Origin: Tianweitania populi
GTDB lineage: Bacteria; Pseudomonadota; Alphaproteobacteria; Rhizobiales; Rhizobiaceae
NCBI RefSeq assembly: GCF_014652875.1
Contig: NZ_BMZQ01000001.1
Coordinates: 62,001-126,000 of the forward strand
Reading direction: 5' to 3'
Length of the DNA: 64,000 nt
Shown here: positions 30,657 to 54,413 of the stretch, piece by piece
Position numbering within the stretch: position 1 is the first letter of the stretch
Layout: every line of letters starts with the position of its first letter
The notes under the pieces: generated by a model
What the model saw: the letters and a program-made list of their open reading frames with translations, nothing else
Databases searched by the model: none
Told to the model about the DNA's origin: nothing
Position numbers and translations under genes: made by a program

Positions 30657-30660
<4 letters not shown>
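29458..30660 (-). CDS. M24-family metallopeptidase (Xaa-Pro aminopeptidase-like)
   Basis: A 400-residue creatinase/pita-bread enzyme. The N-terminal creatinase domain (residues about 25-170) contains SLTYFTGMTLGASERLH. The catalytic domain has the metal ligands in VLIDLGAHIHRYCSDITRTY (Asp and Asp), a histidine in LPHRTGHGLGMDMHEEPYI, Glu in FSNEPMLALYG and Glu in VRLEDI. It would cleave an Xaa-Pro dipeptide or a related amide. Its ATG overlaps the pepT stop (30657-30660), and a peptide-binding protein gene comes first, so all three probably serve peptide use. Confidence 0.88.
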
Positions 30661-31895
<1,235 letters not shown>

Positions 31896-31933
31896 GGTTT
31901 ACTCGCATTGCAGGTTTCGCATCAGGCAGGGCA

Positions 31934-33940: not shown

Positions 33941-34618
33941 ATGGAAACGTCATCGCTCACGGCACGCCAGCTTTTCGAGCATGCCAAGGCCAACCCGACG
34001 CGCAGGCGTTTCGGTTTCGGGCGTAAGCCGATGCTGATCAATATCGACCTTCAATGTGCTTACACTGCCGTCGGTGAGTTCGCGACGGCTTATGAGACCG
34101 ATCCCAAGCAGCTCGATTATGTGAACGCGCTGGCCGATCTGGCGCGGCAGAAGGGCCTTCCGATCACCTGGACCTATGTCGCCTACATGGATTCGGGCGA
34201 GGATTGCGGTGTGTGGGGAACGCGCACCGACACGCCGGACTCCTTGCAGAACATCAAGGTCGGCTCGCGCCGCGCGGAGTTCGATCCGCGCCTCAAGATC
34301 GACCATGTGAAAGACATCGTCATCAACAAGCGCATGGCGTCGCCGTTCCACGAGACGAACCTGCAATCTCTCATGGTCTGGCATCAGTGCGACACGGTGG
34401 TGATCACGGGCGGATCGACCTCCGGCTGCGTACGCGCCTGTGTGGTGGATGCGATTTCGCGCGGCTACCGGGTTGTGGTCCCGGAAGAATGCGTCGCCGA
34501 CAAGCATGAAAGCCCGCACTTCGCCAATCTCTACGACATTTCGGTGAAGTATGGCGACGTGATCCCGGTTGCCGAAGCGATCGCCTGGTACGAGGCGTAC
34601 CAGCCGGAGGCGCGCTGA
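33941..34618 (+). CDS. Isochorismatase-family amidohydrolase (N-carbamoylsarcosine/maleamate amidase type)
   Basis: A 225-residue cysteine hydrolase. The catalytic triad of the family is visible: Asp in MLINIDLQCAYTA, Lys in DIVINKRMASPFHETN, and Cys in ITGGSTSGCVRACVVDAISR. The start is ATG 33941, with AGGAGG about eight bases upstream. Family members hydrolyse C-N bonds in N-carbamoyl compounds, nicotinamide or maleamate. As the first gene of a long catabolic operon followed by two PuuE-like ring hydrolases, it most likely deaminates the half-amide they produce (inference). One base separates its stop from the next start. Confidence 0.88.
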   Translation: METSSLTARQLFEHAKANPTRRRFGFGRKPMLINIDLQCAYTAVGEFATAYETDPKQLDYVNALADLARQKGLPITWTYVAYMDSGEDCGVWGTRTDTPDSLQNIKVGSRRAEFDPRLKIDHVKDIVINKRMASPFHETNLQSLMVWHQCDTVVITGGSTSGCVRACVVDAISRGYRVVVPEECVADKHESPHFANLYDISVKYGDVIPVAEAIAWYEAYQPEAR

Positions 34619-34619
34619 G

Positions 34620-35567
34620 ATGGCCGCTGACGCAAAACCTATGCAATCCGATCTCGGTCTCTACGACTATCTGCCCTGGAACGAGCGACCGAAGATCGTC
34701 TGGCCGGGCAACAAGAAGATCGCCGTCTGGATTGCGCCGAACATCGAGTTCTATGAATACGATCCGCCGAACAATCCGACCCGCACCCCATGGGCGCGGC
34801 CGAACCCGGACGTGCTCCAATACTCGCACCGCGACTACGGCAACCGCGTCGGCTGGCAGCGGATGATGGCGGCGATGGATCGCGCCGGTTTTCGAGGTTC
34901 AGTGTCGCTCAACGTCGCGCTGTGCGACCACCATCCCGAGATCATAAGGGCATGTGCGGATCGCGGCTGGGAGTTCTTCTCTCACGGCATCTACAACACG
35001 CGCTACGTCTACAACATGACGATCGAACAGGAGCGGGAGATCATCCGCGACGCGTTCGATACGGTGCGCAAGCATACTGGTCAGGAGCTTGCCGGCTGGC
35101 TGTCGCCGGCGCTGTCGAACAATTTTTGGACCATGGACATCCTGTCGGAAGCCGGCATCCAGTATACCTGCGACATGTTCCATGACGACCAGCCCATGCC
35201 GGTCAAGGTCAAGAGCGGCAGACTGATCTCGATGCCCTATTCGCTCGAGATGAACGACGTCATCGTTTACAACACCCAGAAGGTGACGCCGCGCCATTAC
35301 GGCGAGATCATCAAGCGCCAGTTCGACCAGCTCTACAAGGAAGGTGCGGAAAGCGGCACGGTGATGTGCATCCCGCTTCATCCATACCTTGTCGGCCAGC
35401 CGCACCGCATCGATGCCTTTGCCGAAGCGATCGAATATATCGCTGGCCATGACGGCGTTTGGCAGACGACGGGTCGCGAGATCGCCGAAGCCTATCATGC
35501 ATCAGGCGCTTACGACGCCTTCAACGCCGCCATGGCGGCGCATAAGGCGGAAGGGGGATCACGCTGA
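34620..35567 (+). CDS. Polysaccharide-deacetylase-family (CE4/PuuE-like) amidohydrolase 1
   Basis: A 315-residue NodB-homology protein of the subgroup that includes PuuE allantoinase and cyclic imidases. SLNVALCDHHPEIIRACADR and WEFFSHGIYNTRYVYNMT match the conserved strand and metal-histidine region, and GWLSPALSNNFWTMDIL matches the GWLSPG segment. The classical T-F-D-D motif of chitin deacetylases is not present, as in PuuE. There is no signal peptide, so a cytoplasmic small-molecule substrate is expected rather than a polysaccharide. It starts at ATG 34620, one base after the amidase stop. Confidence 0.85.
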   Translation: MAADAKPMQSDLGLYDYLPWNERPKIVWPGNKKIAVWIAPNIEFYEYDPPNNPTRTPWARPNPDVLQYSHRDYGNRVGWQRMMAAMDRAGFRGSVSLNVALCDHHPEIIRACADRGWEFFSHGIYNTRYVYNMTIEQEREIIRDAFDTVRKHTGQELAGWLSPALSNNFWTMDILSEAGIQYTCDMFHDDQPMPVKVKSGRLISMPYSLEMNDVIVYNTQKVTPRHYGEIIKRQFDQLYKEGAESGTVMCIPLHPYLVGQPHRIDAFAEAIEYIAGHDGVWQTTGREIAEAYHASGAYDAFNAAMAAHKAEGGSR

Positions 35568-36490
35568 TGCCGCTGCCCGACAACTATCTCGAATACCCGC
35601 ATCGCCGCTACGGCATGGATCACGACCGTTATGATTGGTCGGACATGTTCCAGCGCAAGCCGATTGCCTGGCCGAACGGCGCGCGGATCGCGCTGTCCTT
35701 GGTCACGCATGTCCAGTATTTCCCGCTCGACATGCCGTCCAAGCCCTTCAAGGCGCCTGGCGCGCTGTCGATGCCTTATCCGGACTTCCGCTATTATACC
35801 AATCGCGACTACGGCAATCGGGTCGGCGTGTTCCGGGTGCTGCGTCTCCTGGCCGAAAAGGGTTTGAAGACCAGCTTCGCGATCAACGGCATCATCGCCA
35901 AGCGCTATCCGGCTTTGCTGCGCGCCGTTGTTGAAGGCGGCCATGAGATCGTCGCCCACGGCCTCGACATGGGCAAGGTGCATCATTCCGGCCTGTCCGA
36001 GGAGGAGGAAAACGCAATCGTGGTCGAAGCCCTGCGCCTCCTGCGCGAGGAAAGCGGGCAGGCGGTCACCGGCTGGCTGTCGCCGGGCCGGGCTCAGAGC
36101 TTCAACACGCCCGACATCCTTGCCCGCAACGGCGTCGCCTACGGCCTCGACTGGGCCAATGACGATCTGCCCTACGAGATGCGGACCGGGGCAGGGCCTT
36201 TGGTCGCCATGCCGCTCGCCTATGAAACCGACGATCGGGTTGTGGCGGACGAGTATTTCCAGTCCGAGCCGCAATGGGTTCAGCAGGTCAGGGATCGCTT
36301 CGACGTGCTTTACCGCGAAAGCGCTGAAGGCGGCGGTCGGGTGATGAGCCTGCCGCTGCATAGCTGGGTGTCCGGCATGCCTTACCGCATCGAGTATCTG
36401 CGGGAAGTCCTCGACTACATCCTTTCGCATGACGGTGTGTGGAACGCACCGGCTGGCGAGATCTGTGCGGCGTTTCGCGCGTCGAACTGA
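35567..36490 (+). CDS. Polysaccharide-deacetylase-family (CE4/PuuE-like) amidohydrolase 2
   Basis: A 307-residue paralogue of the gene just upstream, sharing (H/N)RDYGNRVG, GWLSP and (M/L)P(Y/L) features but otherwise divergent. It retains GGHEIVAHGLDMGKVHHSGL, closer to the PuuE metal-binding pattern, and GWLSPGRAQSFNTPDILARN. Its ATG overlaps the previous stop (TGATG). Tandem non-identical copies suggest two subunits of one enzyme or two ring hydrolases acting on related compounds. There is no export signal. Confidence 0.85.
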   Translation: MPLPDNYLEYPHRRYGMDHDRYDWSDMFQRKPIAWPNGARIALSLVTHVQYFPLDMPSKPFKAPGALSMPYPDFRYYTNRDYGNRVGVFRVLRLLAEKGLKTSFAINGIIAKRYPALLRAVVEGGHEIVAHGLDMGKVHHSGLSEEEENAIVVEALRLLREESGQAVTGWLSPGRAQSFNTPDILARNGVAYGLDWANDDLPYEMRTGAGPLVAMPLAYETDDRVVADEYFQSEPQWVQQVRDRFDVLYRESAEGGGRVMSLPLHSWVSGMPYRIEYLREVLDYILSHDGVWNAPAGEICAAFRASN

Positions 36491-36551
36491 GCTCGCATCA
36501 GGGTTTCGGCGCCAGCCTTTGCCAGCGCCGGACCTTCAAGTGGAGACGATC

Positions 36552-37958
36552 ATGGCAGCCAATGCCGCACCTCGCACGATGCTAGGCAAGATCTGGGATG
36601 AGCATGAGATCCTGCGCCATCCGGCCGGGCCGTCGCTGCTTTATATCGACCGGGACATGATCCACGAAGGCAGCTTCCATGCCTTCGCCGATCTCAAGCG
36701 TCGCGGCCTGAAACCGCGCCGTCCCAAGCAGATCTTCGGCGTTGCTGACCACTATGTGCCGACGCTCGGTCGGCGCTCGGAAGATGCCGCCAGCCCGGCC
36801 ATCGCCCGTATGATCGACACCTTCGACGAAAACATGGAATGGGGCGGTTTGCGCCATTTCGGCCTGACCAGCCGGGAGCAGGGCATCGTCCATGTCGTGG
36901 CACCCGAACAAGGCATCACGCTCCCAGGCCTGACGATCGTCTGCTCCGACAGTCATACGTCGACACAAGGCGCGCTGGGCGCGATCGCGTTTGGCATCGG
37001 TCAATCCGAAAACGCCCATGTGCTTGCGACGCAGACTTTGTGGCAGCTGAAGCCAAAGACCATGCGGGTCACCGTGAATGGGGTGCTGGGTCAGGGCGTC
37101 ACCGCCAAGGACGTGATGCTGGCGCTGATCGCCAAGATCGGTGCGGCCGGTGCGGGCGGCTATGCCATCGAGTTCGCCGGCCCGGTGGTCCGTAACTTCT
37201 CCATCGAAGCGCGCTTAACGCTGTGCAACATGTCGATCGAGGCCGCCGCCCGCTTCGGCATGGTTGCGCCCGATGAGACGACCTTTGCCTATGTCCGAGG
37301 CCGGCATTATGCGCCGTCCGAACAGGAATGGGATGCGGCGGTTGCGCATTGGCGCGAATTCGTCAGCGACCAAGGCGCTGTTTTCGACCGCGAAGTGGTG
37401 CTGGAGGGCGCCGAGATCGCGCCGATGGTAACCTGGGGCACAAGCCCTGAGGATGCCGTTGCGATCAACGGCCGCGTGCCGGACCCCACGATCTTCGACA
37501 ATGCCGACAAGCGCAAGTCTGCCGCGAAGTCGCTTGAATATATGGAACTGGCCCCCGGCACGCCGCTCGACGGGCTCAAGCTCGACAAGGTCTTCATCGG
37601 CTCCTGCACCAACAGCCGCATCGAGGATTTGCGCGCTGCAGCCTCCGTCTTGAAGGGTCGCAAAGCGGTGATCCCCGCAATCGTCGTGCCCGGATCGACG
37701 CAGGTGAAGGAACAGGCGGAGGTCGAAGGACTGGCCCAAACCTTCAAGGAAGCAGGCTTCGAATGGCGTGAGTCCGGCTGCTCCATGTGCGCGGCGATGA
37801 ACGGCGACGTGGTCGGTCCGGGCGAGCGCTGTGCCTCCACCTCGAACCGTAATTTCGTCGGCCGCCAGGGTCCAGGCGCACGCACGCATCTGGTCAGCCC
37901 CGCAATGGCGGCAGCCGCTGCCATCAGCGGTTGTCTCACCGATGTGCGGCGCATGTGA
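36552..37958 (+). CDS. Aconitase-family hydro-lyase large subunit (LeuC-like)
   Basis: A 468-residue protein of LeuC length. The [4Fe-4S] ligands are in FIGSCTNSRIEDLRAAASVL and ESGCSMCAAMNGD. VPGSTQVKEQ, HTSTQGALGAIAFGIGQSEN and GRQGPGARTHLVSPAMAAAA are also family landmarks. The start ATG 36552 follows GGAGACGATC. By sequence alone it would be called 3-isopropylmalate dehydratase, but leucine synthesis is an odd fit inside a catabolic operon between ring hydrolases and a transporter. The same fold serves citraconate/maleate and dimethylmaleate hydratases, which fits the C-C lyase downstream. Confidence 0.85.
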   Translation: MAANAAPRTMLGKIWDEHEILRHPAGPSLLYIDRDMIHEGSFHAFADLKRRGLKPRRPKQIFGVADHYVPTLGRRSEDAASPAIARMIDTFDENMEWGGLRHFGLTSREQGIVHVVAPEQGITLPGLTIVCSDSHTSTQGALGAIAFGIGQSENAHVLATQTLWQLKPKTMRVTVNGVLGQGVTAKDVMLALIAKIGAAGAGGYAIEFAGPVVRNFSIEARLTLCNMSIEAAARFGMVAPDETTFAYVRGRHYAPSEQEWDAAVAHWREFVSDQGAVFDREVVLEGAEIAPMVTWGTSPEDAVAINGRVPDPTIFDNADKRKSAAKSLEYMELAPGTPLDGLKLDKVFIGSCTNSRIEDLRAAASVLKGRKAVIPAIVVPGSTQVKEQAEVEGLAQTFKEAGFEWRESGCSMCAAMNGDVVGPGERCASTSNRNFVGRQGPGARTHLVSPAMAAAAAISGCLTDVRRM

Positions 37959-37971
37959 GGGAGCGGATCGG

Positions 37972-38586
37972 ATGAAAGCCTTCACCAGTGAGACATCGAG
38001 GTTCGTCGCCGTTCCCGGCGTGAACTGCGACACCGACCAGATCATTCCCGGCCGCTTCCTCAAGGCGGATCGTGCGCAGGGCTATGGCCAGTTCCTGTTC
38101 CACGACATTCGTCGCGATGAAAGCGGTGAACTCGACCCTGCCTTCCCCTTGAACAAGCCCGGTGCAGACAGCGCGACCATCCTGCTCGTCGAAGACAATT
38201 TCGGCTGCGGATCCTCGCGCGAAGGCGCGGTCTACGCACTGGTCGATCACGGCATTCGCGCACTGATCGCGCCGAGCTTTGGCGATATCTTCTACAACAA
38301 TGCCCTGAAGAACGGCGTCGTGCCGGTTCGTCTGCCGCTCGCGCTGTGCGACGCGCTTGCCGAACATCTCGCCGAGTTCCCGGATGCGGAAGTGACCGTC
38401 GACCTCGAAAAAAGCGAGGTGATCCTTCCAGCCAATCTGGGCACCCATCCCGTCAGCATCGATCCTTTTGCGCGCGAGGGCATCCTGCGCGGGCTCGATG
38501 AGATCGAGATGACCTTCACTTACGCCGAGCAGATCCAGGCTTTCGAACAAGCGCGGATTGCATCTCATCCATGGCTGGGTCGCTGA
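37972..38586 (+). CDS. Aconitase-family hydro-lyase small subunit (LeuD-like)
   Basis: A 204-residue swivelling-domain subunit. VPGVNCDTDQIIPGRFLKA, DNFGCGSSREGAVYALVDHG and FGDIFYNNALKNGVVPVRL are diagnostic of LeuD. The ATG at 37972 follows GGGAGCGGATCG, 13 bases after the large subunit's stop. It pairs with the LeuC-like subunit to hydrate a C=C bond next to a carboxylate. The substrate loop near the N-terminus differs between IPM, citraconate and homoaconitate enzymes but I cannot assign specificity by eye. Confidence 0.87.
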   Translation: MKAFTSETSRFVAVPGVNCDTDQIIPGRFLKADRAQGYGQFLFHDIRRDESGELDPAFPLNKPGADSATILLVEDNFGCGSSREGAVYALVDHGIRALIAPSFGDIFYNNALKNGVVPVRLPLALCDALAEHLAEFPDAEVTVDLEKSEVILPANLGTHPVSIDPFAREGILRGLDEIEMTFTYAEQIQAFEQARIASHPWLGR

Positions 38587-38634
38587 CGGACGAACCAGCG
38601 CAAATAAGCGCCGTCGAACAATGGGAGACTGTTT

Positions 38635-39849
38635 ATGAACTTCAGAATTGATCGCCGTGACCTCTTGAAAGCCTCTGGTGCGCTGGCCGTGACGCTCGCG
38701 ACACCGTCCATCCTGCGTGCACAAGGCGCCACCGTGAAGGTCGGCGTGCTCGAGCCGCTCACCGGCAACCTCGCTTACAACGGCACGCAGAGTGCGGCCG
38801 GCGCAAAGTTTGCTGCCGACAAGATCAACGCTGCCGGCGGCATCAAGAGCATGAACGGCGCTCAGATCGAGCTGGTCGTGGTGGATGCGCAAAGCCGCCC
38901 AGAAGTCGCCGCTTCATCGGTCGATACGCTTGCTCAGGCCGGTGTCGTCGCCTTTACCGGCGCAACGGCCTCCGCGCTCGGTCTGGCCTCCTCGCAAGCA
39001 GCCGCGAAATATGATCTGGCGCAGGTTTTCTCCATCGGCACCGCCGAGAATATCGTCCAGCGCGGACTTCCCAACGTGTTCCGCTTCACGCCGGGCGTGA
39101 ACAAGTGCACCAGCGTCGCGCTTGAAAACCTAAAGCTGTTGAACGAGGGCGCCGGCAACGTCGTGAAGACTGCGGCGATCGTCCATGAAGACGGCCCATT
39201 CGGTTCCAACATGGCGAAGATCATGGCTGCGGAGCTGCCCAAGCAGGGCATCGAAGTCGTGGAAACCATCTCGCATCCGACGCCGCATCGCGACTTTTCC
39301 AACATTGCGCTGCGCGTAAAGGCCTCGAAGGCCGATATCCTGATCCCGTCGAACTACATCAACGAATACACGCTGATGGCTCGTTCGCTGCGCCAGCAGC
39401 GCGTGGAACTGAAGGCGATCTATTCGATCCTCGGCGGGGCGGCCTCCAACATCAAGTTCGTCCGCGAAAACCAAGAAGTTGCGCAGTACGTCATGGACTG
39501 CAATCACTGGTACGATCCGAACAAGGAGGACTCGAAAGCCCTCGCTGCGGCGGCTTCCGCAGCGGGTCTGGATCTGACCTACGATGTCATGGTGTCCTAC
39601 GCCACGGTGCAGGTCATTGCCGATTCGCTGGAGCGCAGCGGCTCGGACGATCGCAAGAAGATGCTGGAAGCCCTTGCCGCCTCCACCTTCGACCAGTCGA
39701 TCATGCCTTATGGGCCTACCAAGTTCGTCAACGGCGACAACGTCAACTCACGGCCCGTGAACACGCAGATCCGTGGCGAAAAGATCGAGCTTGTGTTCCC
39801 CAAGGAATTCGCAAGCGCCGAGCCGGTGTTCCCGATCCCGGCCAAGTAA
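38635..39849 (+). CDS. Liv-type ABC transporter substrate-binding protein
   Basis: A 404-residue Peripla_BP_6 protein with a twin-arginine-like leader (IDRRDLLKASGALAVTLATP) cleaved near LRA-QG. The mature part opens with VKVGVLEPLTGNLAYNGTQS and has AVVHEDGPF-like AAIVHEDGPFGSNMAKIMAA. It starts a complete branched-chain-type transporter of five genes. Such systems also import aromatic acids, amides and urea, so the name does not fix the ligand; the flanking hydrolases suggest a cyclic imide or amide. A strong hairpin follows its stop. Confidence 0.9.
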   Translation: MNFRIDRRDLLKASGALAVTLATPSILRAQGATVKVGVLEPLTGNLAYNGTQSAAGAKFAADKINAAGGIKSMNGAQIELVVVDAQSRPEVAASSVDTLAQAGVVAFTGATASALGLASSQAAAKYDLAQVFSIGTAENIVQRGLPNVFRFTPGVNKCTSVALENLKLLNEGAGNVVKTAAIVHEDGPFGSNMAKIMAAELPKQGIEVVETISHPTPHRDFSNIALRVKASKADILIPSNYINEYTLMARSLRQQRVELKAIYSILGGAASNIKFVRENQEVAQYVMDCNHWYDPNKEDSKALAAAASAAGLDLTYDVMVSYATVQVIADSLERSGSDDRKKMLEALAASTFDQSIMPYGPTKFVNGDNVNSRPVNTQIRGEKIELVFPKEFASAEPVFPIPAK

Positions 39850-39860
39850 AAGCCGGCTCG

Positions 39861-39891
39861 AAGCTCCGGCGGGCAATCGTCGCCGGAGCTT
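39861..39891 (+). terminator. Hairpin after the Liv-type binding-protein gene
   Basis: AAGCTCCGGCG, loop GGCAATCGT, CGCCGGAGCTT, then TCATTTGC: a perfect eleven-base stem. Located 12 bases after the stop of the binding-protein gene and before the permeases, it is placed as an attenuating or 3'-protecting structure that would give more binding protein than channel. Confidence 0.65.
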
Positions 39892-39919
39892 TCATTTGCA
39901 ACTTTTTCGAGCGAACCTG

Positions 39920-40789
39920 ATGTCGAGTCTGATCTTGCCTGCCGTGTTGAGCGGCCTGATGATGGGGGCGGTCTATGCGCTGATAGCGCTGGGCCTGACC
40001 CTCATCTATGGCGTGCTCCATATCATCAACTTCGCGCATGGCAGCCTGCTGATGCTGGCACTGTTCGCGGTCTATTTCCTGAACTTCTATCTCGGCATCG
40101 ACCCATATCTGGCAATCCCGATCGTGCTGCCGGTCTTCTTTGCCCTGGGCTATGCGCTGCAGCGCGGGTTGATCTCGCCCATGAGCAGCGGCTCGGAACA
40201 GAACGTTCTTTTGATCACGCTGGCATTGTCGATGATCATCGACAATCTCGCGCTGTATTTCTGGACCTCGAACACCCGATCCGTCGACATCCCTTATGCC
40301 TATGACACGGTCGAGATCCTCGGCGCCTTTCTGCCGCTCGGCCGCGTTATCGCCTTTGGTGCGGCCTTGGCGGCAGCACCGCTTCTGTGGCTCTTTATGG
40401 CGCACACTCGCACAGGATCGGCGATCCGGGCGGTGGCGATCGAGAAGCGCGGCGCCGAGCTCGTCGGCATTGACGTCAACCACACCTATGCCGTCTGCTT
40501 CGGCATCGGCACGGCCTGTGTGGCCCTGGCGGCCTGCCTTCTTCTGCCGACCTTCTATGTCACGCCGCAGGTGGGCTACACCTTCGTGCTGGTCGCGTTC
40601 ACCACGGTTGTTCTCGGTGGAATGGGCAGCCTGCTCGGTGCGCTCATCGCCGGCCTGCTGCTTGGCGTGATCGAATCCCTTTGCGGTCTTTTCCTGGGTG
40701 AGAGCCTCGGCCAGATCGGCATCTTCGTCGCCTTTATCCTGATCCTTTTGTTCAAGCCGTCCGGTCTGCTGGGCAAGGTGGGACGCTGA
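39920..40789 (+). CDS. Liv-type ABC transporter permease (LivH-like)
   Basis: A 289-residue inner-membrane permease. The N-terminus LPAVLSGLMMGAVYALIALG and ILHIINFAHGSL-like VLHIINFAHGSLLMLALFAV are the LivH hallmarks; AIRAVAIEKRGAELVGIDVN is the cytoplasmic coupling loop. The start at ATG 39920 fits family length; the upstream open frame reads through the terminator hairpin and is not real. Its stop overlaps the LivM start by one base. Confidence 0.9.
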   Translation: MSSLILPAVLSGLMMGAVYALIALGLTLIYGVLHIINFAHGSLLMLALFAVYFLNFYLGIDPYLAIPIVLPVFFALGYALQRGLISPMSSGSEQNVLLITLALSMIIDNLALYFWTSNTRSVDIPYAYDTVEILGAFLPLGRVIAFGAALAAAPLLWLFMAHTRTGSAIRAVAIEKRGAELVGIDVNHTYAVCFGIGTACVALAACLLLPTFYVTPQVGYTFVLVAFTTVVLGGMGSLLGALIAGLLLGVIESLCGLFLGESLGQIGIFVAFILILLFKPSGLLGKVGR

Positions 40790-41769
40790 TGAAACTTCAG
40801 TCTGCTGGTCAAATCGCGCTGGTTGTCGCTGCCTGCGCCTACCTCCTCAGCGTTTACCTGATGTCCTCGCCGGTCTGGATCGGCTTCACGATCAACGCGC
40901 TCATCGTCGCGATTATCGCTCTGTCCTGGAACATCACCGGTGGCTTCGGCGGCATGTCCTCCTTCGGCCATGCCGCGCTTTACGGCACGGGCGCCTATGC
41001 ATCCGCGATCCTTCAGGTGCAGTTCGGCGTCAATGCCTGGATCGCGTTCGGCTTTGGCATCATTGCCGGCGCGGCGATGGGCGGCTTTATCGGGGCGCTG
41101 GCTTTCCGTTACGGTCTCAAGGGCTCCTACTTCGCCCTGGTGACGCTGGCTTTCGCCGAAGTGCTGCGCATCTGCGCCTCGTCGTTCGCCATCACCGGTG
41201 GCGGCAGCGGCTTGCAGCTGCGGCTCGACCCAGGCGTCGGAACGCTGCAGTTCCCGGATCGCACCGTGTTCTACACGATCCTTCTGGTTGTCGTGGCGCT
41301 TGTGATGCTCCTCACCTTGCTCATCAAGAAGTCCCGTTTCGGCGCCTATCTGGTCGCCATTCGCGAAAACGAGGATGCAGCCCGCGCGCTCGGCATCGAC
41401 ACCTACAAGATCAAGGTTCAGGCGATGGTGATCTCGGGCGCTTTCGGCGGCCTCGCCGGCGCTCTTTATCTTCAACTCTTCCTCTTCATCGACAGCACGG
41501 TTGTTTACGGCAGCGCCGTGTCGATCGAAGCGCTGATCGGCCCCATCATTGGCGGTGCCGGGACTGTCTGGGGACCGTTGATCGGAACGCTGGGCCTGCA
41601 TCTCCTGAGCGAAGGCGCCAAGCATCTCCTTCCAAATGCGCCGGGCCTCAACTTCGTGCTGTATGCCATTGTTCTGATCTGCGCGGTGCGTCTTCTCCCA
41701 CGCGGCCTGATGGGCCTGGCCGCCCTTTTTGGAACCTTCAACAGCCGGAAGGATGACGACCATGCTTGA
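40789..41769 (+). CDS. Liv-type ABC transporter permease (LivM-like)
   Basis: A 326-residue membrane permease with many hydrophobic segments. ALSWNITGGFGGMSSFGHAA is the LivM hallmark, and IRENEDAARALGIDTYKIKV is the coupling loop. It overlaps the start of the LivG-like gene by eight bases. It pairs with the LivH-like protein to form the channel. Confidence 0.9.
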   Translation: MKLQSAGQIALVVAACAYLLSVYLMSSPVWIGFTINALIVAIIALSWNITGGFGGMSSFGHAALYGTGAYASAILQVQFGVNAWIAFGFGIIAGAAMGGFIGALAFRYGLKGSYFALVTLAFAEVLRICASSFAITGGGSGLQLRLDPGVGTLQFPDRTVFYTILLVVVALVMLLTLLIKKSRFGAYLVAIRENEDAARALGIDTYKIKVQAMVISGAFGGLAGALYLQLFLFIDSTVVYGSAVSIEALIGPIIGGAGTVWGPLIGTLGLHLLSEGAKHLLPNAPGLNFVLYAIVLICAVRLLPRGLMGLAALFGTFNSRKDDDHA

Positions 41770-42494
41770 GGTCCGTAATCTTTCGAAGAGCTTCGGCGGG
41801 CTGCAAGCAGTCAGCGATGTTTCGCTGGATGTGCCGGAAGGATCGATCGTCGGGCTGCTCGGCCCTAACGGTGCGGGCAAGACCACTTGCTTCACCATGA
41901 TCGCGGGCTTCACCAAGCCCAATGCAGGCAGCGTGACATTCGAGGGCAAGGACATCACAGGCCTGCCGCCGCACCAGATCTGCGCACGCGGCATGATCCG
42001 CACGTTCCAGATCGTGCAGCCTTTTGCCGGGCTGACGGTGCAGGAAAACATCGCAGTCGGCGCTTATCTGCACCACCATGAGCGCCAGGAAGCCATGGCG
42101 CTCGCTCGCGACGTCGGCAAGCGGCTCGGCATGGGCAACATGCTCGATCGACCTGCATCTTCGCTCACCATCGCCGGGCGCAAGCGCCTGGAACTCGCCC
42201 GTGCCTTGGCCACTGGCGCCAAGCTGCTGCTTCTCGACGAGGTCATGGCGGGTCTGATTCCCTCCGAGATCAACGAGATCGTGGGCATTATCCGGCAGAT
42301 CCGCGAGGAAGGCCACACCTTCCTGATGATCGAGCACGTGATGCAGGCGGTGATGAGCCTCGCCGAAACGGCTTACGTCCTCAACCAGGGTAAGCTGATC
42401 GCACACGGACCGCCGCGCGACCTGGTCAAGGACGCTTCCGTTGTCGAAGCCTATCTCGGCCACGGCGCGGCCGCACGCCTGCAGGATGAACACC

Positions 42495-42502
<8 letters not shown>
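41762..42502 (+). CDS. Liv-type ABC transporter ATPase (LivG-like)
   Basis: A 246-residue ATPase with Walker A GPNGAGKTTCF, Walker B LLLLDEVMAGLIPSEI and TFLMIEHVMQAVM. I choose ATG 41762 because GGAAGG lies nine bases upstream, while ATG 41753 would have no room for a ribosome site. The ABC signature reads SLTIAGRKRLELARAL, with LTIAG for the usual LSGGQ, a known variation in LivG proteins. It overlaps both flanking genes by eight bases. Confidence 0.9.
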
Positions 42503-43196
<694 letters not shown>

Positions 43197-43248
43197 ATGC
43201 GCCGGACGCGCAATCACAGCCTGGCTCTACAATGAATTGGAGAACACC

Positions 43249-44142
43249 ATGTCCTTAACGCGCACAAAGCGCTTGCGGCAGGCGCTTGCAGGCAAGCGAG
43301 CTGTCATGGCTCCCGGCGTGGTTGACGCCATGTATGCCCGTCTCGTCGCGGAAGCAGGCTTCGAGGCCATGTATATGACCGGCGCCGGCACGTCGGCGAC
43401 CCGTCTCGGCTACCCCGATGTCGGCCTTCTCACCATGACCGAGATGGTCGACAACGCCACGCGCATCGCCGATGCCTCGGACGTTCCGCTGATCGCCGAT
43501 GCCGACAACGGTTTCGGCGGACCGCTCAATGTGCGTCGCGCAATCCAGCTCTACGAGCGTGGCGGGGTTGCCGCGATCCATCTGGAAGATCAGGTGCTGC
43601 CCAAGCGTTGTGGTCACCTTTCGGGCAAGCAGCTCGTTCCAGCAGCCGACATGGTCGCCAAGGTGAAGGCAGCCGTCGACGCCCGCATCGACCAGGACTT
43701 CGTGGTGATCGCGCGGACGGATGCCTTGTCGGTGGACGGCCGTGATGCTGCCTTCGACCGTGCTGAAATGTACCGCGACGCGGGTGCAGACGTGATCTTC
43801 ATCGAAAGCCCCGGTCCTGACGACCTCGCTCATATCGCGCCGCGCTTTCCCGGTATTGCGCTGCTTTACAACATGGCGACCTCCGGCAAGACGCCGTTCC
43901 TGAAGCGTGAGGAAATCGAGGAACTCGGCTTCAAGCTGATCATCTATCCGAACTGGCTGCTGCTTTCGGCGATGGAGGCCGCGCGCAAGACCCTCGAGAT
44001 CATGAAGACGGAAGAGTCGATCGCCTCGGTTGCCCCCAACGTCATGAGCTTCAAGCAGTTCTTCGACACGGCACGCATGGCTGAGGTTCAGGAGCTGGAA
44101 GCGCGCTACGGCACGCCGGAAAACAGCCGCACCGGCTACTGA
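43249..44142 (+). CDS. Isocitrate lyase/PEP mutase family C-C lyase
   Basis: A 297-residue alpha/beta-barrel enzyme of the 2-methylisocitrate lyase length class. Mg-binding residues lie in LIADADNGFGG and AIHLEDQ. The catalytic-cysteine motif is LPKRCGHLSGKQLV, which marks the lyase (C-C cleaving) branch rather than PEP mutase. VIARTDALSVDGRDAAFDRA and FIESPGPDD follow. Members cleave 2-methylisocitrate, 2,3-dimethylmalate or related hydroxy-diacids to pyruvate or glyoxylate plus an acid, and some decarboxylate oxaloacetate. Next to a LeuCD-like hydro-lyase, a substituted-malate lyase is the best guess. The start is ATG 43249 behind GGAGAACACC. Confidence 0.85.
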   Translation: MSLTRTKRLRQALAGKRAVMAPGVVDAMYARLVAEAGFEAMYMTGAGTSATRLGYPDVGLLTMTEMVDNATRIADASDVPLIADADNGFGGPLNVRRAIQLYERGGVAAIHLEDQVLPKRCGHLSGKQLVPAADMVAKVKAAVDARIDQDFVVIARTDALSVDGRDAAFDRAEMYRDAGADVIFIESPGPDDLAHIAPRFPGIALLYNMATSGKTPFLKREEIEELGFKLIIYPNWLLLSAMEAARKTLEIMKTEESIASVAPNVMSFKQFFDTARMAEVQELEARYGTPENSRTGY

Positions 44143-44150
44143 GGCTTTTC

Positions 44151-44169
44151 AAGGAGGCGCAGCGCGCCT
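44151..44169 (+). other. Intercistronic hairpin before the flavoprotein gene
   Basis: GGAGGCGC, AGC, GCGCCTCC: an eight-base perfect stem located 8 bases after the lyase stop. No T-run follows, so it is more likely an mRNA-processing or stabilising element than a terminator. Confidence 0.4.
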
Positions 44170-44194
44170 CCGCCCGTCGAACAAGAGGTTGATC

Positions 44195-45601
44195 ATGGCG
44201 CTTCTCAGTCCCGAAGGCGTAACGTTCGAATTCGAAGTTCCGGTTGTGGTGGTGGGCGCAGGCGCCTGCGGCCTCGTCGCCGCCCTGGCGGCCCATGATG
44301 CCGGGCAGTCTGTGATCATTTTGGAGCGGGACGAGAACCCGACCGGGTCGACCTCGCTTTCCGCGGGCCTGATCCCGGCGCCGTGCACCCGGCTTCAGAA
44401 AGAAGCCGGCATCGAGGACAGTCCTGAACTCTTTGCCGCGGACATCGTCGCCAAGACGCACGACCATACGCCCCACGATCAGGCGTTGGTTGCTGCCCGC
44501 GCTGCCGGGCCGATGATCGACTGGCTGATGGAAAAGCATGGTATCGAATTCGAGCTGGTGACCGGCTTCCTATATCCCGGCCATTCGCGACTGCGCATGC
44601 ATGGGCCCAAGAGCCGCACGGGCGCCGATCTCGAACAAGCCTTGCTGGCAGCCGTTTCCAATGCCGGCATCGACCTCATCACCGGCGCTTCGGTCGAGGA
44701 CATCTATGCAGACGCTTCAGGTCACGTCGTCGGCGTGCGCTGCCGCCGGTCTGATGGTGCAACCGAAGATCTCGGCTGCCAAGCGCTGATACTGGCCTGC
44801 TGCGGTTTTGCGGGCGATGCGCAGATGGTGCGCCAATACATTCCCGAAATTGCCGATGCCGAATGTTGCGGTCACCTGTCGAACACCGGCGATGCCGTGA
44901 AGTGGGGAACAGCACTTGGCGCGGCGACCGCTGACATGGGCGCGTATCAGGGCCACGGCTCGGTCGCCCATCCGCATTCCCTGCCGCTAACCTGGGCCGT
45001 GATCACCAAGGGCGGCATTCTCGTGAACAAGGATGGTCAGCGCTTCTCCAATGAAATGCGCGGTTATTCCGAGCATGGCGCCGAAGTGGCGGCGCAGCCG
45101 GATCACATCGCATGGGACATCTTCGGCGCGTCCGGCCATGAGGCTGCGGAAGGGTTTTATGATTATCGCGAGCTTCGCAAGCTTGGCGCGGTCAAGACGG
45201 CGGACACGGTGGAAGAGCTATCCGAGGTCACGGGGCTTCCGCTTTTTCACCTAAAAGCGGAATTTCAGGCCATTGAAGAGGCGATTTCTGCCGGAAAACC
45301 GGATCGTTTCGGGAGAAACTTCGCCCAAAGTGACGTCCTGAAGCCGCCTTTTTACGCCGTGAAGGTCAATGGCGCGCTGTTCCATACGCAGGGCGGATTG
45401 GTCATCGATGACCAGGCAAGGGTGCTGCGACAAGGCGGTGAGCCTTTGCCGAACCTGTTCGCCGGCGGCGGTGCCGCGCGCGGAGTCTCGGGTGATTCCA
45501 ACTACGGCTACCTATCGGGCAACGGTCTTCTGACAGCCACGACCTTCGGCAGGCTCGCCGGCATGAGCGCTGCACGAATTGCCGAAGCAGCTGACGCCTG
45601 A
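44195..45601 (+). CDS. FAD-dependent dehydrogenase, fumarate reductase/tricarballylate dehydrogenase type
   Basis: A 468-residue FAD_binding_2 flavoprotein. VPVVVVGAGACGLVAALAAH is the dinucleotide site, ERDENPTGSTSLSAGLIP the pyrophosphate loop, and LFAGGGAARGVSG and YGYLSGNGLL the C-terminal contacts. No heme or iron-sulfur motifs occur, so it resembles soluble enzymes such as TcuA that oxidise saturated di- or tricarboxylates to alkenes, or 3-ketosteroid dehydrogenases. In this operon it could introduce the double bond that the LeuCD-like enzyme later hydrates (inference). The ATG at 44195 is preferred to TTG 44189 six bases earlier. Confidence 0.85.
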   Translation: MALLSPEGVTFEFEVPVVVVGAGACGLVAALAAHDAGQSVIILERDENPTGSTSLSAGLIPAPCTRLQKEAGIEDSPELFAADIVAKTHDHTPHDQALVAARAAGPMIDWLMEKHGIEFELVTGFLYPGHSRLRMHGPKSRTGADLEQALLAAVSNAGIDLITGASVEDIYADASGHVVGVRCRRSDGATEDLGCQALILACCGFAGDAQMVRQYIPEIADAECCGHLSNTGDAVKWGTALGAATADMGAYQGHGSVAHPHSLPLTWAVITKGGILVNKDGQRFSNEMRGYSEHGAEVAAQPDHIAWDIFGASGHEAAEGFYDYRELRKLGAVKTADTVEELSEVTGLPLFHLKAEFQAIEEAISAGKPDRFGRNFAQSDVLKPPFYAVKVNGALFHTQGGLVIDDQARVLRQGGEPLPNLFAGGGAARGVSGDSNYGYLSGNGLLTATTFGRLAGMSAARIAEAADA

Positions 45602-45627
45602 TCCACAAACGCGACGAGGGAGGAAAC

Positions 45628-46401
45628 ATGAAGAAGGTTCTGGTGATCGTGCCTTTTCCGATGGGTGAGGAAGACCTCGCCCGGCGGCAGGCACAGATGA
45701 AGGCGGTCGATCTCGGGCCGGGCATCGAGTTCCACTACAAGGCGGTTCGGGTCGGGCCGAAGAACTATTCCAGCCAGCACGACATGGTGCTCGCGGATAT
45801 CTCCATCGTTGACGCCGGGCTCGACGCGGAGAAGGACGGCTTCGATGCGGTTTGCATCGACACGATGTCGGACAGCGGCATGGCGATGCTGCGCTCGGTC
45901 CTCACCATTCCCGTCATCGCGCCCGGCCGCCACGCCATGCTCGTGGCGCAGATGCTGGGGGAGAAGTTCTCGATCCTGATGATGTGGGATCGCTGGAAGA
46001 TGCTCTACACGAAAACGCTGGGCGAACTCGGCATGGAGCACAAATGCGCGTCCATGCGCTCCATCGGCGTGACGCCGGACAACAAGAGCCTCCTGTCCGG
46101 CAAGGAAGAAGAGGTGTTCCCGCTGCTACTCGACGCAGCAAGGAAGTGCGTGGAAGAAGATGGCGCGCAGGTGCTGATCCTGGGCTCCACCACCATGCAT
46201 GAGGCGCATGGCTGGTTGTCGAAGCAGATCGGCGTACCGGTGATCAATCCGGGACCGCTGACCTACAAGCTTGCCTCGATTGCGGTCGACCTCAAACTCA
46301 CCCACAGCAAGGCCACCTGGCCGACGCCGCTGGCGCCCAAGCACGAGATGATCCGCGCCATTGGCGCGGCAGGCGCGGCCTATCTGGAGGGACGCCCATG
46401 A
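45628..46401 (+). CDS. Asp/Glu racemase superfamily protein 1, cysteine-less active site
   Basis: A 257-residue protein with the two-lobed Asp/Glu/hydantoin racemase fold. AVCIDTMSDSGMAMLRSV aligns with the first catalytic-cysteine loop of hydantoin racemases (consensus A-C-F-G-D-P-G) but has Thr there. VLILGSTTMHEA aligns with the second (L-G-C-A-G-M) but has Ser. Both expected cysteines are therefore replaced. A Cys in AVCID is two residues away and may not substitute. Relatives include maleate isomerase and arylmalonate decarboxylase, so isomerisation or decarboxylation of a dicarboxylate is possible. AGGAGG precedes the start. Confidence 0.8.
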   Translation: MKKVLVIVPFPMGEEDLARRQAQMKAVDLGPGIEFHYKAVRVGPKNYSSQHDMVLADISIVDAGLDAEKDGFDAVCIDTMSDSGMAMLRSVLTIPVIAPGRHAMLVAQMLGEKFSILMMWDRWKMLYTKTLGELGMEHKCASMRSIGVTPDNKSLLSGKEEEVFPLLLDAARKCVEEDGAQVLILGSTTMHEAHGWLSKQIGVPVINPGPLTYKLASIAVDLKLTHSKATWPTPLAPKHEMIRAIGAAGAAYLEGRP

Positions 46402-47174
46402 CCCGCATCCTCGTCATCGTTCCCTTCGCGCTGGATGCCGAAGGCGTCAGGAACCGTGAAGCGCAATCCGGTTATGTGCCGCTGCCCGATGGTTGGGAAC
46501 TCATCTATCGCCCGGTGACCTGCGGCCCGACCTCCTTCATGTCGCCCCATGATTGGGGATTGATGGATCTCGCCATCTTCGAAGCCGGCTGCAATGCCGA
46601 AGCCGAAGGGTTTGATACCGTTTGCATCGACACGATGTCGGACAGCGGCATGGTTGCGCTACGCTCCGTGCTGTCGATCCCGGTCATTGGGGCCGGCAAG
46701 GCGTCCATGCTTTACGCGCTGACGCTTGGCGGGCGCTTCTCCGTTCTCGCGCAATGGGAGCCGGCGCTGCCGCGCTATCGCAAGGCCATCCGCGAATATG
46801 GCTTCGACCGGCAATGCGCTTCCGTGCGGAGCTTCGACCAGCCGCCGGACTTCTCCAACCTTCTCGACGGCAAGGAAGACAAGGTGTTCCCGCGCATGCG
46901 CGATGTCGCCATGCGCTGCATCGAGGAAGACGGCGCGGAGGTGATCTGCCTTGGCTCGACCACAATGCATCAGGCCGGCGAATACCTTGCCGCCAATCTG
47001 CCGGTGCCGGTCGTCAATCCCGGCCCGCTGACCTACAAGCTCATGGAAACGTTCCTGGCCCTCGGTCTCACCCATGGCCGCGACGTTTATCCGGCGCCGG
47101 TCGAACCGCGGCTCGACATGGTGCATGCCATGATGAAGGCCGGTGCTGCAGCGGAAAACGCGGCCAAGGGCTGA
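46398..47174 (+). CDS. Asp/Glu racemase superfamily protein 2, cysteine-less active site
   Basis: A 258-residue paralogue of the preceding gene, joined by an ATGA overlap. It keeps the same substituted motifs, CIDTMSDSGMVALRSVLSIP and ICLGSTTMHQAGEYLA, so the unusual active site is shared and not a random loss. The two differ elsewhere (for example SVLAQWEPALPRYRKAIREY versus SILMMWDRWKMLYTKTLGEL), suggesting heteromer subunits or two related substrates. It is the last gene of the long operon; the GntR regulator is convergent 39 bases beyond. Confidence 0.8.
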   Translation: MTRILVIVPFALDAEGVRNREAQSGYVPLPDGWELIYRPVTCGPTSFMSPHDWGLMDLAIFEAGCNAEAEGFDTVCIDTMSDSGMVALRSVLSIPVIGAGKASMLYALTLGGRFSVLAQWEPALPRYRKAIREYGFDRQCASVRSFDQPPDFSNLLDGKEDKVFPRMRDVAMRCIEEDGAEVICLGSTTMHQAGEYLAANLPVPVVNPGPLTYKLMETFLALGLTHGRDVYPAPVEPRLDMVHAMMKAGAAAENAAKG

Positions 47175-47213: not shown

Positions 47214-47984
47214 TCAGGTCCGTCCCAGCGAAAAGTCCTTGCCGTCTTCGCGCTTAAGCGAAACGCGGTATTCGTAGCGGTCGGCGCAGTAGAAGATTTC
47301 GGCCGCGTAAAAGGGCTTCAATTCGGCATTGAAGAACAGGCGCTTGACCAGCATCAAGGGTGCCCCGACGGGTATCTCCAGATGCTTTGCTGCATAGTCG
47401 TCAGCAAGCGTCGCCGTCATGGTCTGCTCGACCTGTTCCACAGTGGCGCCCGCCTGCTGCACGAGATCGATCATGTTGGTTTTCGCCAGATCCTGACGCT
47501 TCAGCATCCCTCCAAACTCAGGCAGGATGTAGGCCGTGGACAGCGAGTAGGGACGGCGCTCCAAGAGGCGCACACGGACGGCGCGAACCAGTTCCGTGGT
47601 CGGTGCGATACCCATTTCTGCACAAACGCGAGGCGGCGCCTCGCCGTGATCCAGGCTGATCACCTTCAAGCGCGTACTCTTGCCGACGTCGTTCAGGTAA
47701 CTGAACAGGCTGTTGACGTTCGAGACAACGGCCTTGTTGAACTCGTCCTCCTTCGTGCGTTTGGTGACAAAGGTTCCGCGCCCTCGAGTACGGGTCACGA
47801 GCCGCTCGGCAGTAAGCATCTCCATGGCTTTGCGGATCGTGATGCGGCTGACCGAAAAGCTTTCCGACAGCTCCGCCTCGCTGGGGATCGCACGGTCGTC
47901 CGGATAATAGCCTTTGACGATCCGCTCCCGCAGCACCGCATAGATGCGATGGTAGAGCGGTGTAGGAGAATGCACTTGAACCAT
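47214..47984 (-). CDS. GntR-family regulator, HutC/UTRA type
   Basis: A 256-residue regulator. The N-terminal winged helix contains IPSEAELSESFSVSRITIRK and AMEMLTAERLVTRTRGRGTF. The C-terminal UTRA (chorismate-lyase-like) domain includes VCAEMGIAPTTELVRAVRVR and a ligand pocket around RRPYSLSTAYILPEFG. It faces the end of the 13-kb plus-strand operon and most likely represses it until an intermediate of the pathway binds. Its operator is expected near 33820-33845 and close to its own start. Confidence 0.88.
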   Translation of the reverse strand: MVQVHSPTPLYHRIYAVLRERIVKGYYPDDRAIPSEAELSESFSVSRITIRKAMEMLTAERLVTRTRGRGTFVTKRTKEDEFNKAVVSNVNSLFSYLNDVGKSTRLKVISLDHGEAPPRVCAEMGIAPTTELVRAVRVRLLERRPYSLSTAYILPEFGGMLKRQDLAKTNMIDLVQQAGATVEQVEQTMTATLADDYAAKHLEIPVGAPLMLVKRLFFNAELKPFYAAEIFYCADRYEYRVSLKREDGKDFSLGRT

Positions 47985-49576: not shown

Positions 49577-49829
49577 CGCCGTGCATCATATTTCCAGCGC
49601 GGTGGTTGTCGTGCGGCCCGAGGCGGTGGAGCGCATCTCGGCCAGCCTTGGTGAACTCGAAGGCGTGGAAGTCCATGCCAGCGGAAACAACAAGATCGTC
49701 ACCGTGATCGAGGGACCGACATCCGGGTTCCTTGGCGACACGCTGATCCAGATTTCGGCCATGGACGACGTCATCGCCGCCCACATGGTCTTCGAACAAA
49801 GCATTGCAGAAGAAGGAGATGTCGCATGA
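49569..49829 (+). CDS. napD: NapA signal-peptide chaperone NapD
   Basis: An 86-residue NapD with the typical [20 protein letters not shown] start and [11 protein letters not shown] middle. It binds the twin-arginine signal of NapA and delays export until the cofactors are inserted. It overlaps both napF and napA by a few bases (ATGA with napA), fitting coupled synthesis with its client. Confidence 0.93.
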
Positions 49830-52327: not shown

Positions 52328-52791
52328 TCGCGCGGCGTTGCTGGGCCCTTGCGGCAGTGGTCTTGTGCGTGCTGACGACGACGTTCGCACTGGCTCAGTC
52401 GGTGCCGGAACTCTCCGGCCAGCCGAACCCCATGGAAACGGCGGGCGCAAAGCCCATGCCAAAGTGGATCGTCGACGACATCCGCAAGATGCGCAACTAT
52501 CCTGATCAGCCGCCGATTATCCCGCATTCGATCGATGGTTATCAGCTGTCGGTGAACACCAACCGCTGCATGTCCTGCCACCGGCGCGAGATGACCGAAG
52601 GCTCGGGCGCGCCGATGATCAGCGTCACCCACTACATGACGCGTGAAGGCCAGATGCTGGCGGACGTTTCGCCGCGCCGCTACTTCTGCACGGCATGTCA
52701 TGTGCCGCAGGCGGAAAGCCGTCCTTTGGTCGACAACGTCTTCAAGGACATGAGCGATCTTGGCGTCAAGCCGGCGGGGGCTGAGCAATGA
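52324..52791 (+). CDS. napB: Periplasmic nitrate reductase diheme cytochrome NapB
   Basis: A 155-residue periplasmic cytochrome starting at an ATGA overlap with napA. The signal peptide ([20 protein letters not shown]) is followed by two heme-binding motifs, CMSCH and CTACH. It passes electrons from NapC to NapA. The C-terminus overlaps napC by four bases. An upstream extension of the open frame lies inside napA and is not real. Confidence 0.94.
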
Positions 52792-53483: not shown

Positions 53484-53490
53484 GTCAACC

Positions 53491-53519
53491 GGCGGGAGCT
53501 GCCCTCAGCAGCTTCCGCC
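53491..53519 (+). terminator. Hairpin at the end of the nap operon
   Basis: GGCGGGAGCTGC, loop CCTCA, GCAGCTTCCGCC: a twelve-base stem with one G-T wobble, eight bases after the napC stop. No clear T-run follows, but position supports a transcript end. Confidence 0.6.
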
Positions 53520-54115: not shown

Positions 54116-54152
54116 ATGCGCGCATCATTTCGATGACGCTTGGGAGGGAACT

Positions 54153-54329: not shown

Positions 54330-54413
54330 AAAAAGCCAGGCCAGAACGCGTCACCGCCGCCCTTCCCGAAAAGAAGAGCGGCGGCTAACGTCGAAAGACT
54401 ACCGGTCCCTTTG

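What the first reader, a model, noticed from the sequence alone, without database searches (positions are those of the whole stretch)
33941..47174. Candidate pathway for uptake and breakdown of a cyclic imide or amide, ending in C-C cleavage
Twelve same-strand, mostly overlapping genes combine a set I know of no description for: isochorismatase-type amidase, two PuuE/imidase-type CE4 hydrolases, a LeuCD-type hydro-lyase, a full Liv transporter, a KRCGH-type C-C lyase, a fumarate-reductase-type flavoprotein and two racemase-fold proteins. Known family chemistry orders them logically: import; ring opening to a half-amide; deamination to a dicarboxylate; dehydrogenation and/or cis-trans isomerisation; hydration; lyase cleavage to pyruvate-like products. 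A substituted maleimide or succinimide would fit. The substrate is my inference.
Basis: partly seen in the sequence, partly recalled or inferred. Interest (0 to 1): 0.78.

Follow-up and report, generated by a model that had tools for sequence, protein, structure and literature searches.

The report
Conserved operon for cyclic imide breakdown
A bacterial block of fourteen genes, kept together in many soil and plant bacteria, looks like a complete and apparently undescribed route for importing a ring-shaped nitrogen compound, opening the ring and cutting its carbon chain, although the compound itself is still unknown.

Summary
Window 33941-47174 carries 14 (not 12) same-strand genes: isochorismatase-type amidohydrolase (ICH), two PuuE-like CE4 proteins, LeuC, LeuD, a five-gene Liv-type transporter, an isocitrate-lyase-family (ICL) C-C lyase, an FAD protein and two racemase-fold proteins. 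In 61 fetched loci ICH-CE4a-CE4b follow each other in 60; the first 12 genes keep the window's order in 29, and 26 of those 29 genomes have both racemase-fold genes next. The genome has its own, better LeuC, so this pair is a catabolic paralogue. In some other lineages the core is tied to different hydratases and lyases, which supports "ring opening, deamidation, hydration, C-C cleavage"; 24 of 61 loci show no LeuC, so the core also serves other routes. The substrate (substituted succinimide/maleimide favoured; hydantoin or glutarimide possible) is inference. My ten searches of open-access papers gave no description.

The parts
33941..34618 (+). ICH: isochorismatase-fold amidohydrolase; proposed half-amide (or N-carbamoyl) hydrolase
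   Evidence: Pfam PF00857; best PDB hit 4l07 (isochorismatase-family hydrolase), best with a named reaction N-carbamoylsarcosine amidohydrolase; Asp36 74/74, Lys130 73/74, Cys163 74/74 distinct homologues
34620..35567 (+). CE4a: PuuE-like CE4 hydrolase; proposed catalytic ring-opening enzyme
   Evidence: N41, E43, E46, H122, H254 invariant in 84 of 84 distinct homologues
35567..36490 (+). CE4b: paralogue of CE4a; His, Gln and Pro in place of N41, E43, E46 but both His kept; proposed partner subunit or second hydrolase
36552..37958 (+). LeuC-type hydro-lyase large subunit, catabolic paralogue
   Evidence: PF00330; second LeuC in genome scores 825 vs 637 bits; 54% identity to it; three Fe-S Cys 49/49
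37972..38586 (+). LeuD-type small subunit
38635..39849 (+). Liv-type substrate-binding protein
   Evidence: PF13458
39920..40789 (+). Liv-type permease A
   Evidence: PF02653
40789..41769 (+). Liv-type permease B
   Evidence: PF02653
41753..42502 (+). Liv-type ATPase (LivG-like)
   Evidence: PF00005, PF12399
42486..43196 (+). Liv-type ATPase (LivF-like)
   Evidence: PF00005
43249..44142 (+). ICL/PEP-mutase family C-C lyase with KRCGH
   Evidence: PF13714; best PDB 2,3-dimethylmalate lyase 3fa3; KRCGH Lys, Cys and His 46/46 each
44195..45601 (+). FAD protein of the flavocytochrome-c/TcuA superfamily; proposed dehydrogenase next to a carbonyl
45628..46401 (+). RacA: Asp/Glu/hydantoin racemase fold, both catalytic Cys replaced (Thr79, Ser187)
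46398..47174 (+). RacB: paralogue of RacA with the same Thr/Ser replacements
47214..47984 (-). GntR-UTRA regulator, probable regulator of the operon
   Evidence: PF07702, PF00392; at the same end in L111, L112, L114 and L142; a more distant GntR lies upstream of ICH in L079, L081, L082, L083, L110 and L147

Best explanation
It is a catabolic operon for a small substituted cyclic imide (or similar N-ring), most likely a succinimide/maleimide-type ring. Import is by the Liv-type ABC transporter. The FAD protein probably desaturates next to a ring carbonyl (inferred). CE4a, perhaps with CE4b as partner, opens the ring to a half-amide, and ICH removes ammonia to give a substituted maleate-type dicarboxylate. 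The LeuCD paralogue hydrates or isomerises it to a substituted malate. The ICL-family lyase splits that into a 2-oxoacid (glyoxylate or pyruvate type) and a carboxylate. RacA and RacB are not classical racemases; their step is unknown. Shown: gene set, linkage, residue conservation, a better LeuC elsewhere in the genome, recurrent coupling of the core to hydratase plus lyase in part of the lineages. Inferred: the order, the substrate and every reaction.
For: Core consecutive in 60 of 61 loci; 12-gene block in the same order in 29 of 61, and both Rac genes next to it in 26 of those 29 genomes. Alcaligenaceae loci (L080, L081, L110) and G265 keep the set in another order. Core plus a shorter, DmdAB/HACN-size hydratase plus ICL-type lyase in L034, L106, L107 and L134. 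Core plus LeuCD plus CoA-transferase plus HMG-CoA-lyase-type gene in L133, L136, L139. A second, better LeuC is in the genome. ICH triad and KRCGH residues are conserved. HxnM, a published cyclic imide hydrolase of A. nidulans whose product goes to an amidase, is related to HpPgdA and PuuE (PMC9304392, passages). Rac and CE4a co-occur in 201 related genomes (7 and 7, overlap 6; the 60% identity line was set after seeing the hits).
Against: No substrate, expression or enzyme data. The closest named solved relatives of ICH, CE4 and Rac are ureide/hydantoin enzymes. 24 of 61 loci show no LeuC hit and 25 no lyase hit (7 of the 24 are under 8 kb), so the core can feed other routes. With all 11 CE4a genomes the overlap with Rac is 6 of 11. 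The order of steps rests on family chemistry.
Confidence: 0.5

Rival explanations
1. Hydantoin/ureide route: the substrate is a 5-substituted hydantoin or dihydropyrimidine; CE4a opens it to an N-carbamoyl acid, ICH removes the carbamoyl group, and LeuCD and lyase process the remaining skeleton.
For: Closest named PDB relatives are PuuE allantoinase, N-carbamoylsarcosine amidohydrolase and allantoin/hydantoin racemase. Nitrilase-family genes lie near the core in L099, L105 and L141. HyuAB-type genes are beside it in Salipiger, and a HyuB gene and an aminotransferase gene lie about 10-13 kb upstream in the window.
Against: An amino-acid product would need deamination, and no aminotransferase or deaminase lies in the operon itself. 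The racemase-fold proteins lack both Cys. LeuCD plus C-C lyase has no obvious role after a carbamoyl amino acid.
Confidence: 0.2
2. Glutarimide-type route: the core opens a six-membered imide to glutaramate and glutarate; other genes serve side products.
For: In Paracoccus (L070, L071, L077) and Ramlibacter (L093, L095) a trio of gene clusters lies beside the core, which in L095 are LysR, acyl-CoA dehydrogenase and CoA-transferase III; the dehydrogenase reads to me like glutaryl-CoA dehydrogenase (recalled; one search names no family over its cut-off). HxnM acts on 3-hydroxyglutarimide (PMC9304392, passages).
Against: LeuCD and an ICL-type lyase need a C4-dicarboxylate core, not glutarate; the trio shows in 3 of the 29 loci printed (some of them have little upstream DNA).
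Confidence: 0.15
3. Ordinary genes wrongly read: sugar deacetylases, leucine biosynthesis LeuCD and branched-chain amino acid uptake, next to each other by chance.
For: Pfam and NCBIfam names on their own; the operon LeuC passes the LeuC cut-off.
Against: Conserved linkage in dozens of genomes; separate, better LeuC; PuuE-like rather than NodB-like CE4.
Confidence: 0.03

Closest known systems
Eubacterium barkeri nicotinate fermentation, last steps: dimethylmaleate hydratase DmdAB and 2,3-dimethylmalate lyase (recalled)
   Same: LeuCD-superfamily hydratase followed by ICL/PEP-mutase-family lyase; the window lyase's best PDB match is a 2,3-dimethylmalate lyase, a fungal entry by recall
   Different: There the acid comes by a radical mutase and an isomerase (recalled); here it would come from imide ring opening and deamidation. 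The window LeuCD is of the long LeuCD type
Aspergillus nidulans nicotinate pathway HxnM (cyclic imidase) and HxnN (amidase), PMC9304392 (passages read)
   Same: PuuE/CE4-related cyclic imide hydrolase followed by an amidase
   Different: Six-membered hydroxyglutarimide giving 2-hydroxyglutarate; eukaryote; no linked hydratase and C-C lyase in the passages read
Cyclic imide metabolism with imidase and half-amidase (Blastobacter, Pseudomonas putida YZ-26; recalled, and titles seen in reference lists)
   Same: Imide to half-amide to dicarboxylate logic
   Different: No linked transporter, hydratase, lyase and FAD set in what I saw (titles only)
Methylcitrate cycle (PrpD, aconitase-type hydratase, PrpB lyase)
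   Same: Hydratase plus ICL-family lyase; MmgE/PrpD genes also accompany several of these loci
   Different: Lyase below the PrpB cut-off, 274.5 vs 354.4 bits; core is imide/amide hydrolases
Allantoin/hydantoin racemases (KpAllR, PfAllR, OpaE)
   Same: Same fold, Foldseek E 2.4e-15
   Different: Both catalytic Cys replaced by Thr and Ser in 38 of 38 distinct homologues; the double Cys-to-Ser mutant of OpaE keeps at most 0.3% activity (PMC12661438, passages)

Membership tests
Leucine-biosynthesis LeuCD | sequence match over the LeuC cut-off | tested here: met
   637 bits against cut-off 560
Leucine-biosynthesis LeuCD | is the genome's best LeuC copy | tested here: not met
   another LeuC scores 825 bits elsewhere; operon copy is 54% identical to it; function not assayed
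Aconitase/IPMI hydro-lyase | three 4Fe-4S Cys (positions recalled) | tested here: met
   49 of 49 at each position
ICL/PEP-mutase lyases | K(K/R)CGH catalytic motif | tested here: met
   Lys, Cys and His of KRCGH 46 of 46 each
Methylisocitrate lyase PrpB | NCBIfam TIGR02317 cut-off | tested here: not met
   274.5 vs 354.4 bits
2,3-dimethylmalate lyase | activity on 2,3-dimethylmalate | not testable with these tools
   only best PDB match
PuuE allantoinase | TIGR03212 cut-off | tested here: not met
   122.9 and 126.9 vs 424.6 bits
Cyclic imide hydrolase (CE4 type) | imide hydrolysis | not testable with these tools
   family resemblance only
Isochorismatase-fold amidohydrolases | Asp-Lys-Cys triad (recalled) | tested here: met
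   74/74, 73/74, 74/74
Fumarate/urocanate reductase | general-acid Arg and second carboxylate-binding Arg (roles recalled) | tested here: not met
   first Arg aligns with Tyr291 (49/49); second is in a gapped stretch with GYxSG, Tyr439 in 43 of 43 sequences aligned there; the two active-site His align
Asp/Glu/hydantoin racemase | fold | tested here: met
   AlphaFold2 pLDDT 82 from a 5-sequence alignment; Foldseek TM 0.76-0.78 to allantoin racemases
Asp/Glu/hydantoin racemase | two catalytic Cys | tested here: not met
   Thr79 38/38, Ser187 38/38; alignment to 3qvj
Maleate cis-trans isomerase | catalytic Cys pair | tested here: inconclusive
   the superfamily's Cys positions hold Thr/Ser, but no direct alignment to a maleate isomerase was made; such entries appear only lower in the fold list

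The most novel reading that the evidence does not exclude
The operon mineralises dialkyl-substituted maleimides or succinimides of the kind left by chlorophyll, heme or bilin breakdown (such as methyl-ethyl- or methyl-vinyl-maleimide), releasing ammonia and then cutting the dialkylmalate. RacA/RacB are a Cys-free branch of the Asp/Glu racemase superfamily with a new Thr/Ser chemistry on the imide. This would be a first genetic route for the last step of tetrapyrrole carbon and nitrogen recycling.
Probability: 0.08. Interest if true: 0.85.

Novelty: new variant of a known kind. Interest (0 to 1): 0.55.

Why it matters
It appears to be a widespread, plasmid- and chromosome-borne catabolic route with no description in the papers I searched. 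It gives a concrete gene set (core ICH-CE4a-CE4b plus hydratase plus lyase) to test against imides, and it shows a conserved Cys-free branch of a well-studied racemase superfamily, often kept in two paralogous copies, whose chemistry is unknown. Public annotations call the plasmid-borne relatives polysaccharide deacetylase, isochorismatase and isopropylmalate dehydratase, so the pathway is hidden.

Tried and rejected
Leucine biosynthesis for LeuCD: rejected, a better LeuC exists. Methylcitrate cycle for the lyase: below the PrpB cut-off; the genome's only other ICL-family gene found looks like isocitrate lyase. Racemase role for RacA/B: rejected on the missing Cys pair; maleate isomerase role: unlikely for the same reason, not aligned directly. 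Fumarate-reductase role for the FAD protein: weakened by the missing Arg pair. A ketosteroid-dehydrogenase-like Tyr mechanism is only a lead from recall plus weaker PDB hits. Substrate from neighbours: no neighbour outside the core was seen in all lineages; the acyl-CoA dehydrogenase trio, MmgE/PrpD, TRAP/Tct transporters, SDR and nitrilase genes each recur in only part of the loci (Pfam was run on chosen proteins of chosen loci, not on all). Plasmid pJE1 literature: two listings; in the one I opened (PMC13101465) the match is an unrelated vector. A Polaromonas plasmid paper (PMC6015842, passages) lists a racemase and a polysaccharide deacetylase on one plasmid without linking them. Promoter/terminator scan: nothing above the shuffles. 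My own ORF caller missed genes in some loci, so the counts rest on tblastn.
Full report
Observation. The window holds 14 plus-strand genes from 33941 to 47174: ICH, CE4a, CE4b, LeuC, LeuD, five Liv-type transporter genes, an ICL/PEP-mutase-family lyase, an FAD protein, RacA and RacB. A GntR-UTRA regulator gene follows on the minus strand. With my choice of starts, gaps between genes are at most 70 bases and 5 of 13 junctions overlap. The genome is 4.29 Mb. The nearest named relative found is Tianweitania aestuarii (CE4a 96% identical), and a same-genus genome has its match at the same contig coordinates.

Is the group real? A scan of public genomes with CE4a gave 61 loci. All 61 contain hits to ICH, CE4a and CE4b; in 60 of 61 these are consecutive hits in that order and strand (the exception, L106 Phenylobacterium, has ICH inverted), with gaps of at most 150 bases in 58 of the 60 (L095 and L099 have 208 and 457 between ICH and CE4a). 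In 29 of 61 the first 12 genes occur in the window's order with no gap over 105 bases, in Rhizobiaceae, Paracoccus, Defluviimonas, Microvirga and others. The racemase-fold genes lie beyond the fetched DNA of most loci, so I searched the genomes behind 47 of the 61 loci; 36 of 47 have a match. Of the 29 genomes with the 12-gene block, 26 have an intact RacA plus RacB pair right after it. The three without are L058 (none found), L059 (the locus stops 625 bases from the contig end) and L076 (pieces with stops). Alcaligenaceae loci L080, L081 and L110 keep the set with the FAD gene moved next to LeuD, and RacA-RacB follow the lyase in L080 and L081; L110 stops near its contig end. G265 has all 14 in a third order.

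What does not fit. 24 of 61 loci show no LeuC hit and 25 no lyase hit; 7 of the 24 are under 8 kb, but some of the others have about 10 kb on each side. In the ones I looked at, the core sits with CoA-transferase, acyl-CoA dehydrogenase, MmgE/PrpD, TRAP or Tct transporter, nitrilase or SDR genes in various mixes. So the core is the constant part and the hydratase-lyase end is one of its partners.

Independent coupling. In several lineages the core is joined to other versions of the same chemistry. L034, L106 and L107 have LeuC proteins of 428-454 aa, related to the window's at only 32-35%, together with an ICL-type lyase; the L107 and L034 large subunits and the 166-aa small subunit of L107 (LeuD/DmdB family) score best with homoaconitase/archaeal-type models. 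The Burkholderia plantarii plasmid locus L134 has a similar short pair plus lyase plus FAD protein. Sphingomonad plasmids L133 and L139 have core, LeuCD and ICL-type lyase, with a second LeuCD beside a CoA-transferase and an HMG-CoA-lyase-type gene. Acidiphilium L136 has core, LeuCD, FAD protein, CoA-transferase and HMG-CoA-lyase-type gene but no ICL-type lyase in the stretch. The lyases show at least two motif types: YNMATSG in the window type, mostly ANMVEGG in the others. Replacement of parts while the function is kept is what one expects of a pathway with hydration and C-C cleavage.

Presence across genomes. In 201 related genomes (own included), CE4a at 60% identity or more occurs in 7. 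Eleven pass E 1e-60; I dropped the 4 with 41-46% identity, a line drawn after seeing the hits. RacA/B-type proteins (E 1e-40) occur in 7, with 6 shared; Fisher p is 5.7e-10, not corrected for relatedness. In G020 the RacA gene sits with a Liv-type transporter and an MmgE/PrpD gene on another contig, and in G029 with an FAD and an MmgE/PrpD gene about 127 kb from the core, so linkage alone does not explain the co-occurrence. G311 has a Rac without such a CE4a, and G267 the reverse.

Parts in detail. ICH keeps its Asp-Lys-Cys triad. CE4a keeps N41, E43, E46, H122 and H254 in 84 of 84 distinct homologues. At the matching places the window's CE4b has His, Gln, Pro, His and His; among 70 distinct CE4b the second is Gln in 36 and Glu in 34, the first of the two conserved His is His in 45 and Asn in 20, and the last His is kept in 63. 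CE4b may thus be a partner or a hydrolase with a changed site; I do not know the catalytic roles of these residues. LeuCD: a separate LeuC scores 825 bits against 637 for the operon copy, so the leucine objection carries little weight. Lyase: best PDB match 2,3-dimethylmalate lyase; below the PrpB cut-off.

FAD protein. Its best matches are flavocytochrome fumarate reductases and urocanate reductase. The His pair aligns, but the general-acid Arg aligns with Tyr291 (49 of 49), and the second Arg falls in a gapped stretch where these proteins have GYxSG; the roles of those residues are from recall. A dehydrogenation next to a ring carbonyl is therefore my inference rather than dicarboxylate reduction.

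RacA and RacB. The fold is that of allantoin racemase (model pLDDT 82; Foldseek), but both catalytic Cys are replaced by Thr79 and Ser187 in all 38 distinct homologues at 45% identity or more, both paralogues counted together. More distant racemase-fold genes in sphingomonad and Variovorax plasmids do not follow this motif. Published work says the Cys pair is conserved across the superfamily and that the double Cys-to-Ser mutant of OpaE keeps at most 0.3% activity; one known enzyme has a Thr/Cys pair (PMC12661438, passages).

Mechanism. The best reading is import, possible desaturation, ring opening, deamidation, hydration and cleavage, for a substituted succinimide/maleimide-type ring. Hydantoins and glutarimides remain possible. 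[quoted passage not shown] This makes the boldest reading conceivable but not supported.

Literature. Ten full-text searches listed no description of this gene set; one search showed 20 of 123 papers. I saw listings, and passages of eight papers. The library is open-access only, so absence there is weak.

Noticed in passing
window 19087-22821: A hydantoinase B/oxoprolinase gene (21187-22821) preceded by a 695-aa ORF that may be its A partner (not scanned); hydantoinase/oxoprolinase genes also lie beside the core in Salipiger (L135) and about 11 kb from it in Acidiphilium (L136).
   Followed up: partly
window 29458-33535: Divergent block of M24 creatinase/prolidase-type, M20 peptidase and SBP_bac_5 genes directly upstream of the operon.
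   Followed up: no
L111:3722-5161: An MmgE/PrpD gene follows RacB in Tianweitania aestuarii (L111), Defluviimonas (L112) and Microvirga (L118) but has no match in the window; MmgE/PrpD genes recur in other core loci.
   Followed up: partly
L095:5400-8866 and L070:206-3534: LysR, acyl-CoA dehydrogenase and CoA-transferase III trio beside the core in both Ramlibacter and Paracoccus, resembling a glutarate module (recalled).
   Followed up: partly
L048:7624-19228: A Hyphomicrobiales locus combining an FAD monooxygenase, two arylmalonate-decarboxylase/EutA-like proteins, a CE4 protein, lyase, LeuCD and a distant ICH: perhaps a related pathway with a different front end.
   Followed up: partly
L123:3463-9308: In a Rhodoferax-type genome a separate block holds ICH, lyase, LeuC, LeuD, RacB and FAD without CE4 genes.
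   Followed up: partly
window 49826-60221: Molybdopterin oxidoreductase, multicopper oxidase and FGE-sulfatase-type genes downstream, perhaps a nitrate/nitrite respiration region.
   Followed up: no
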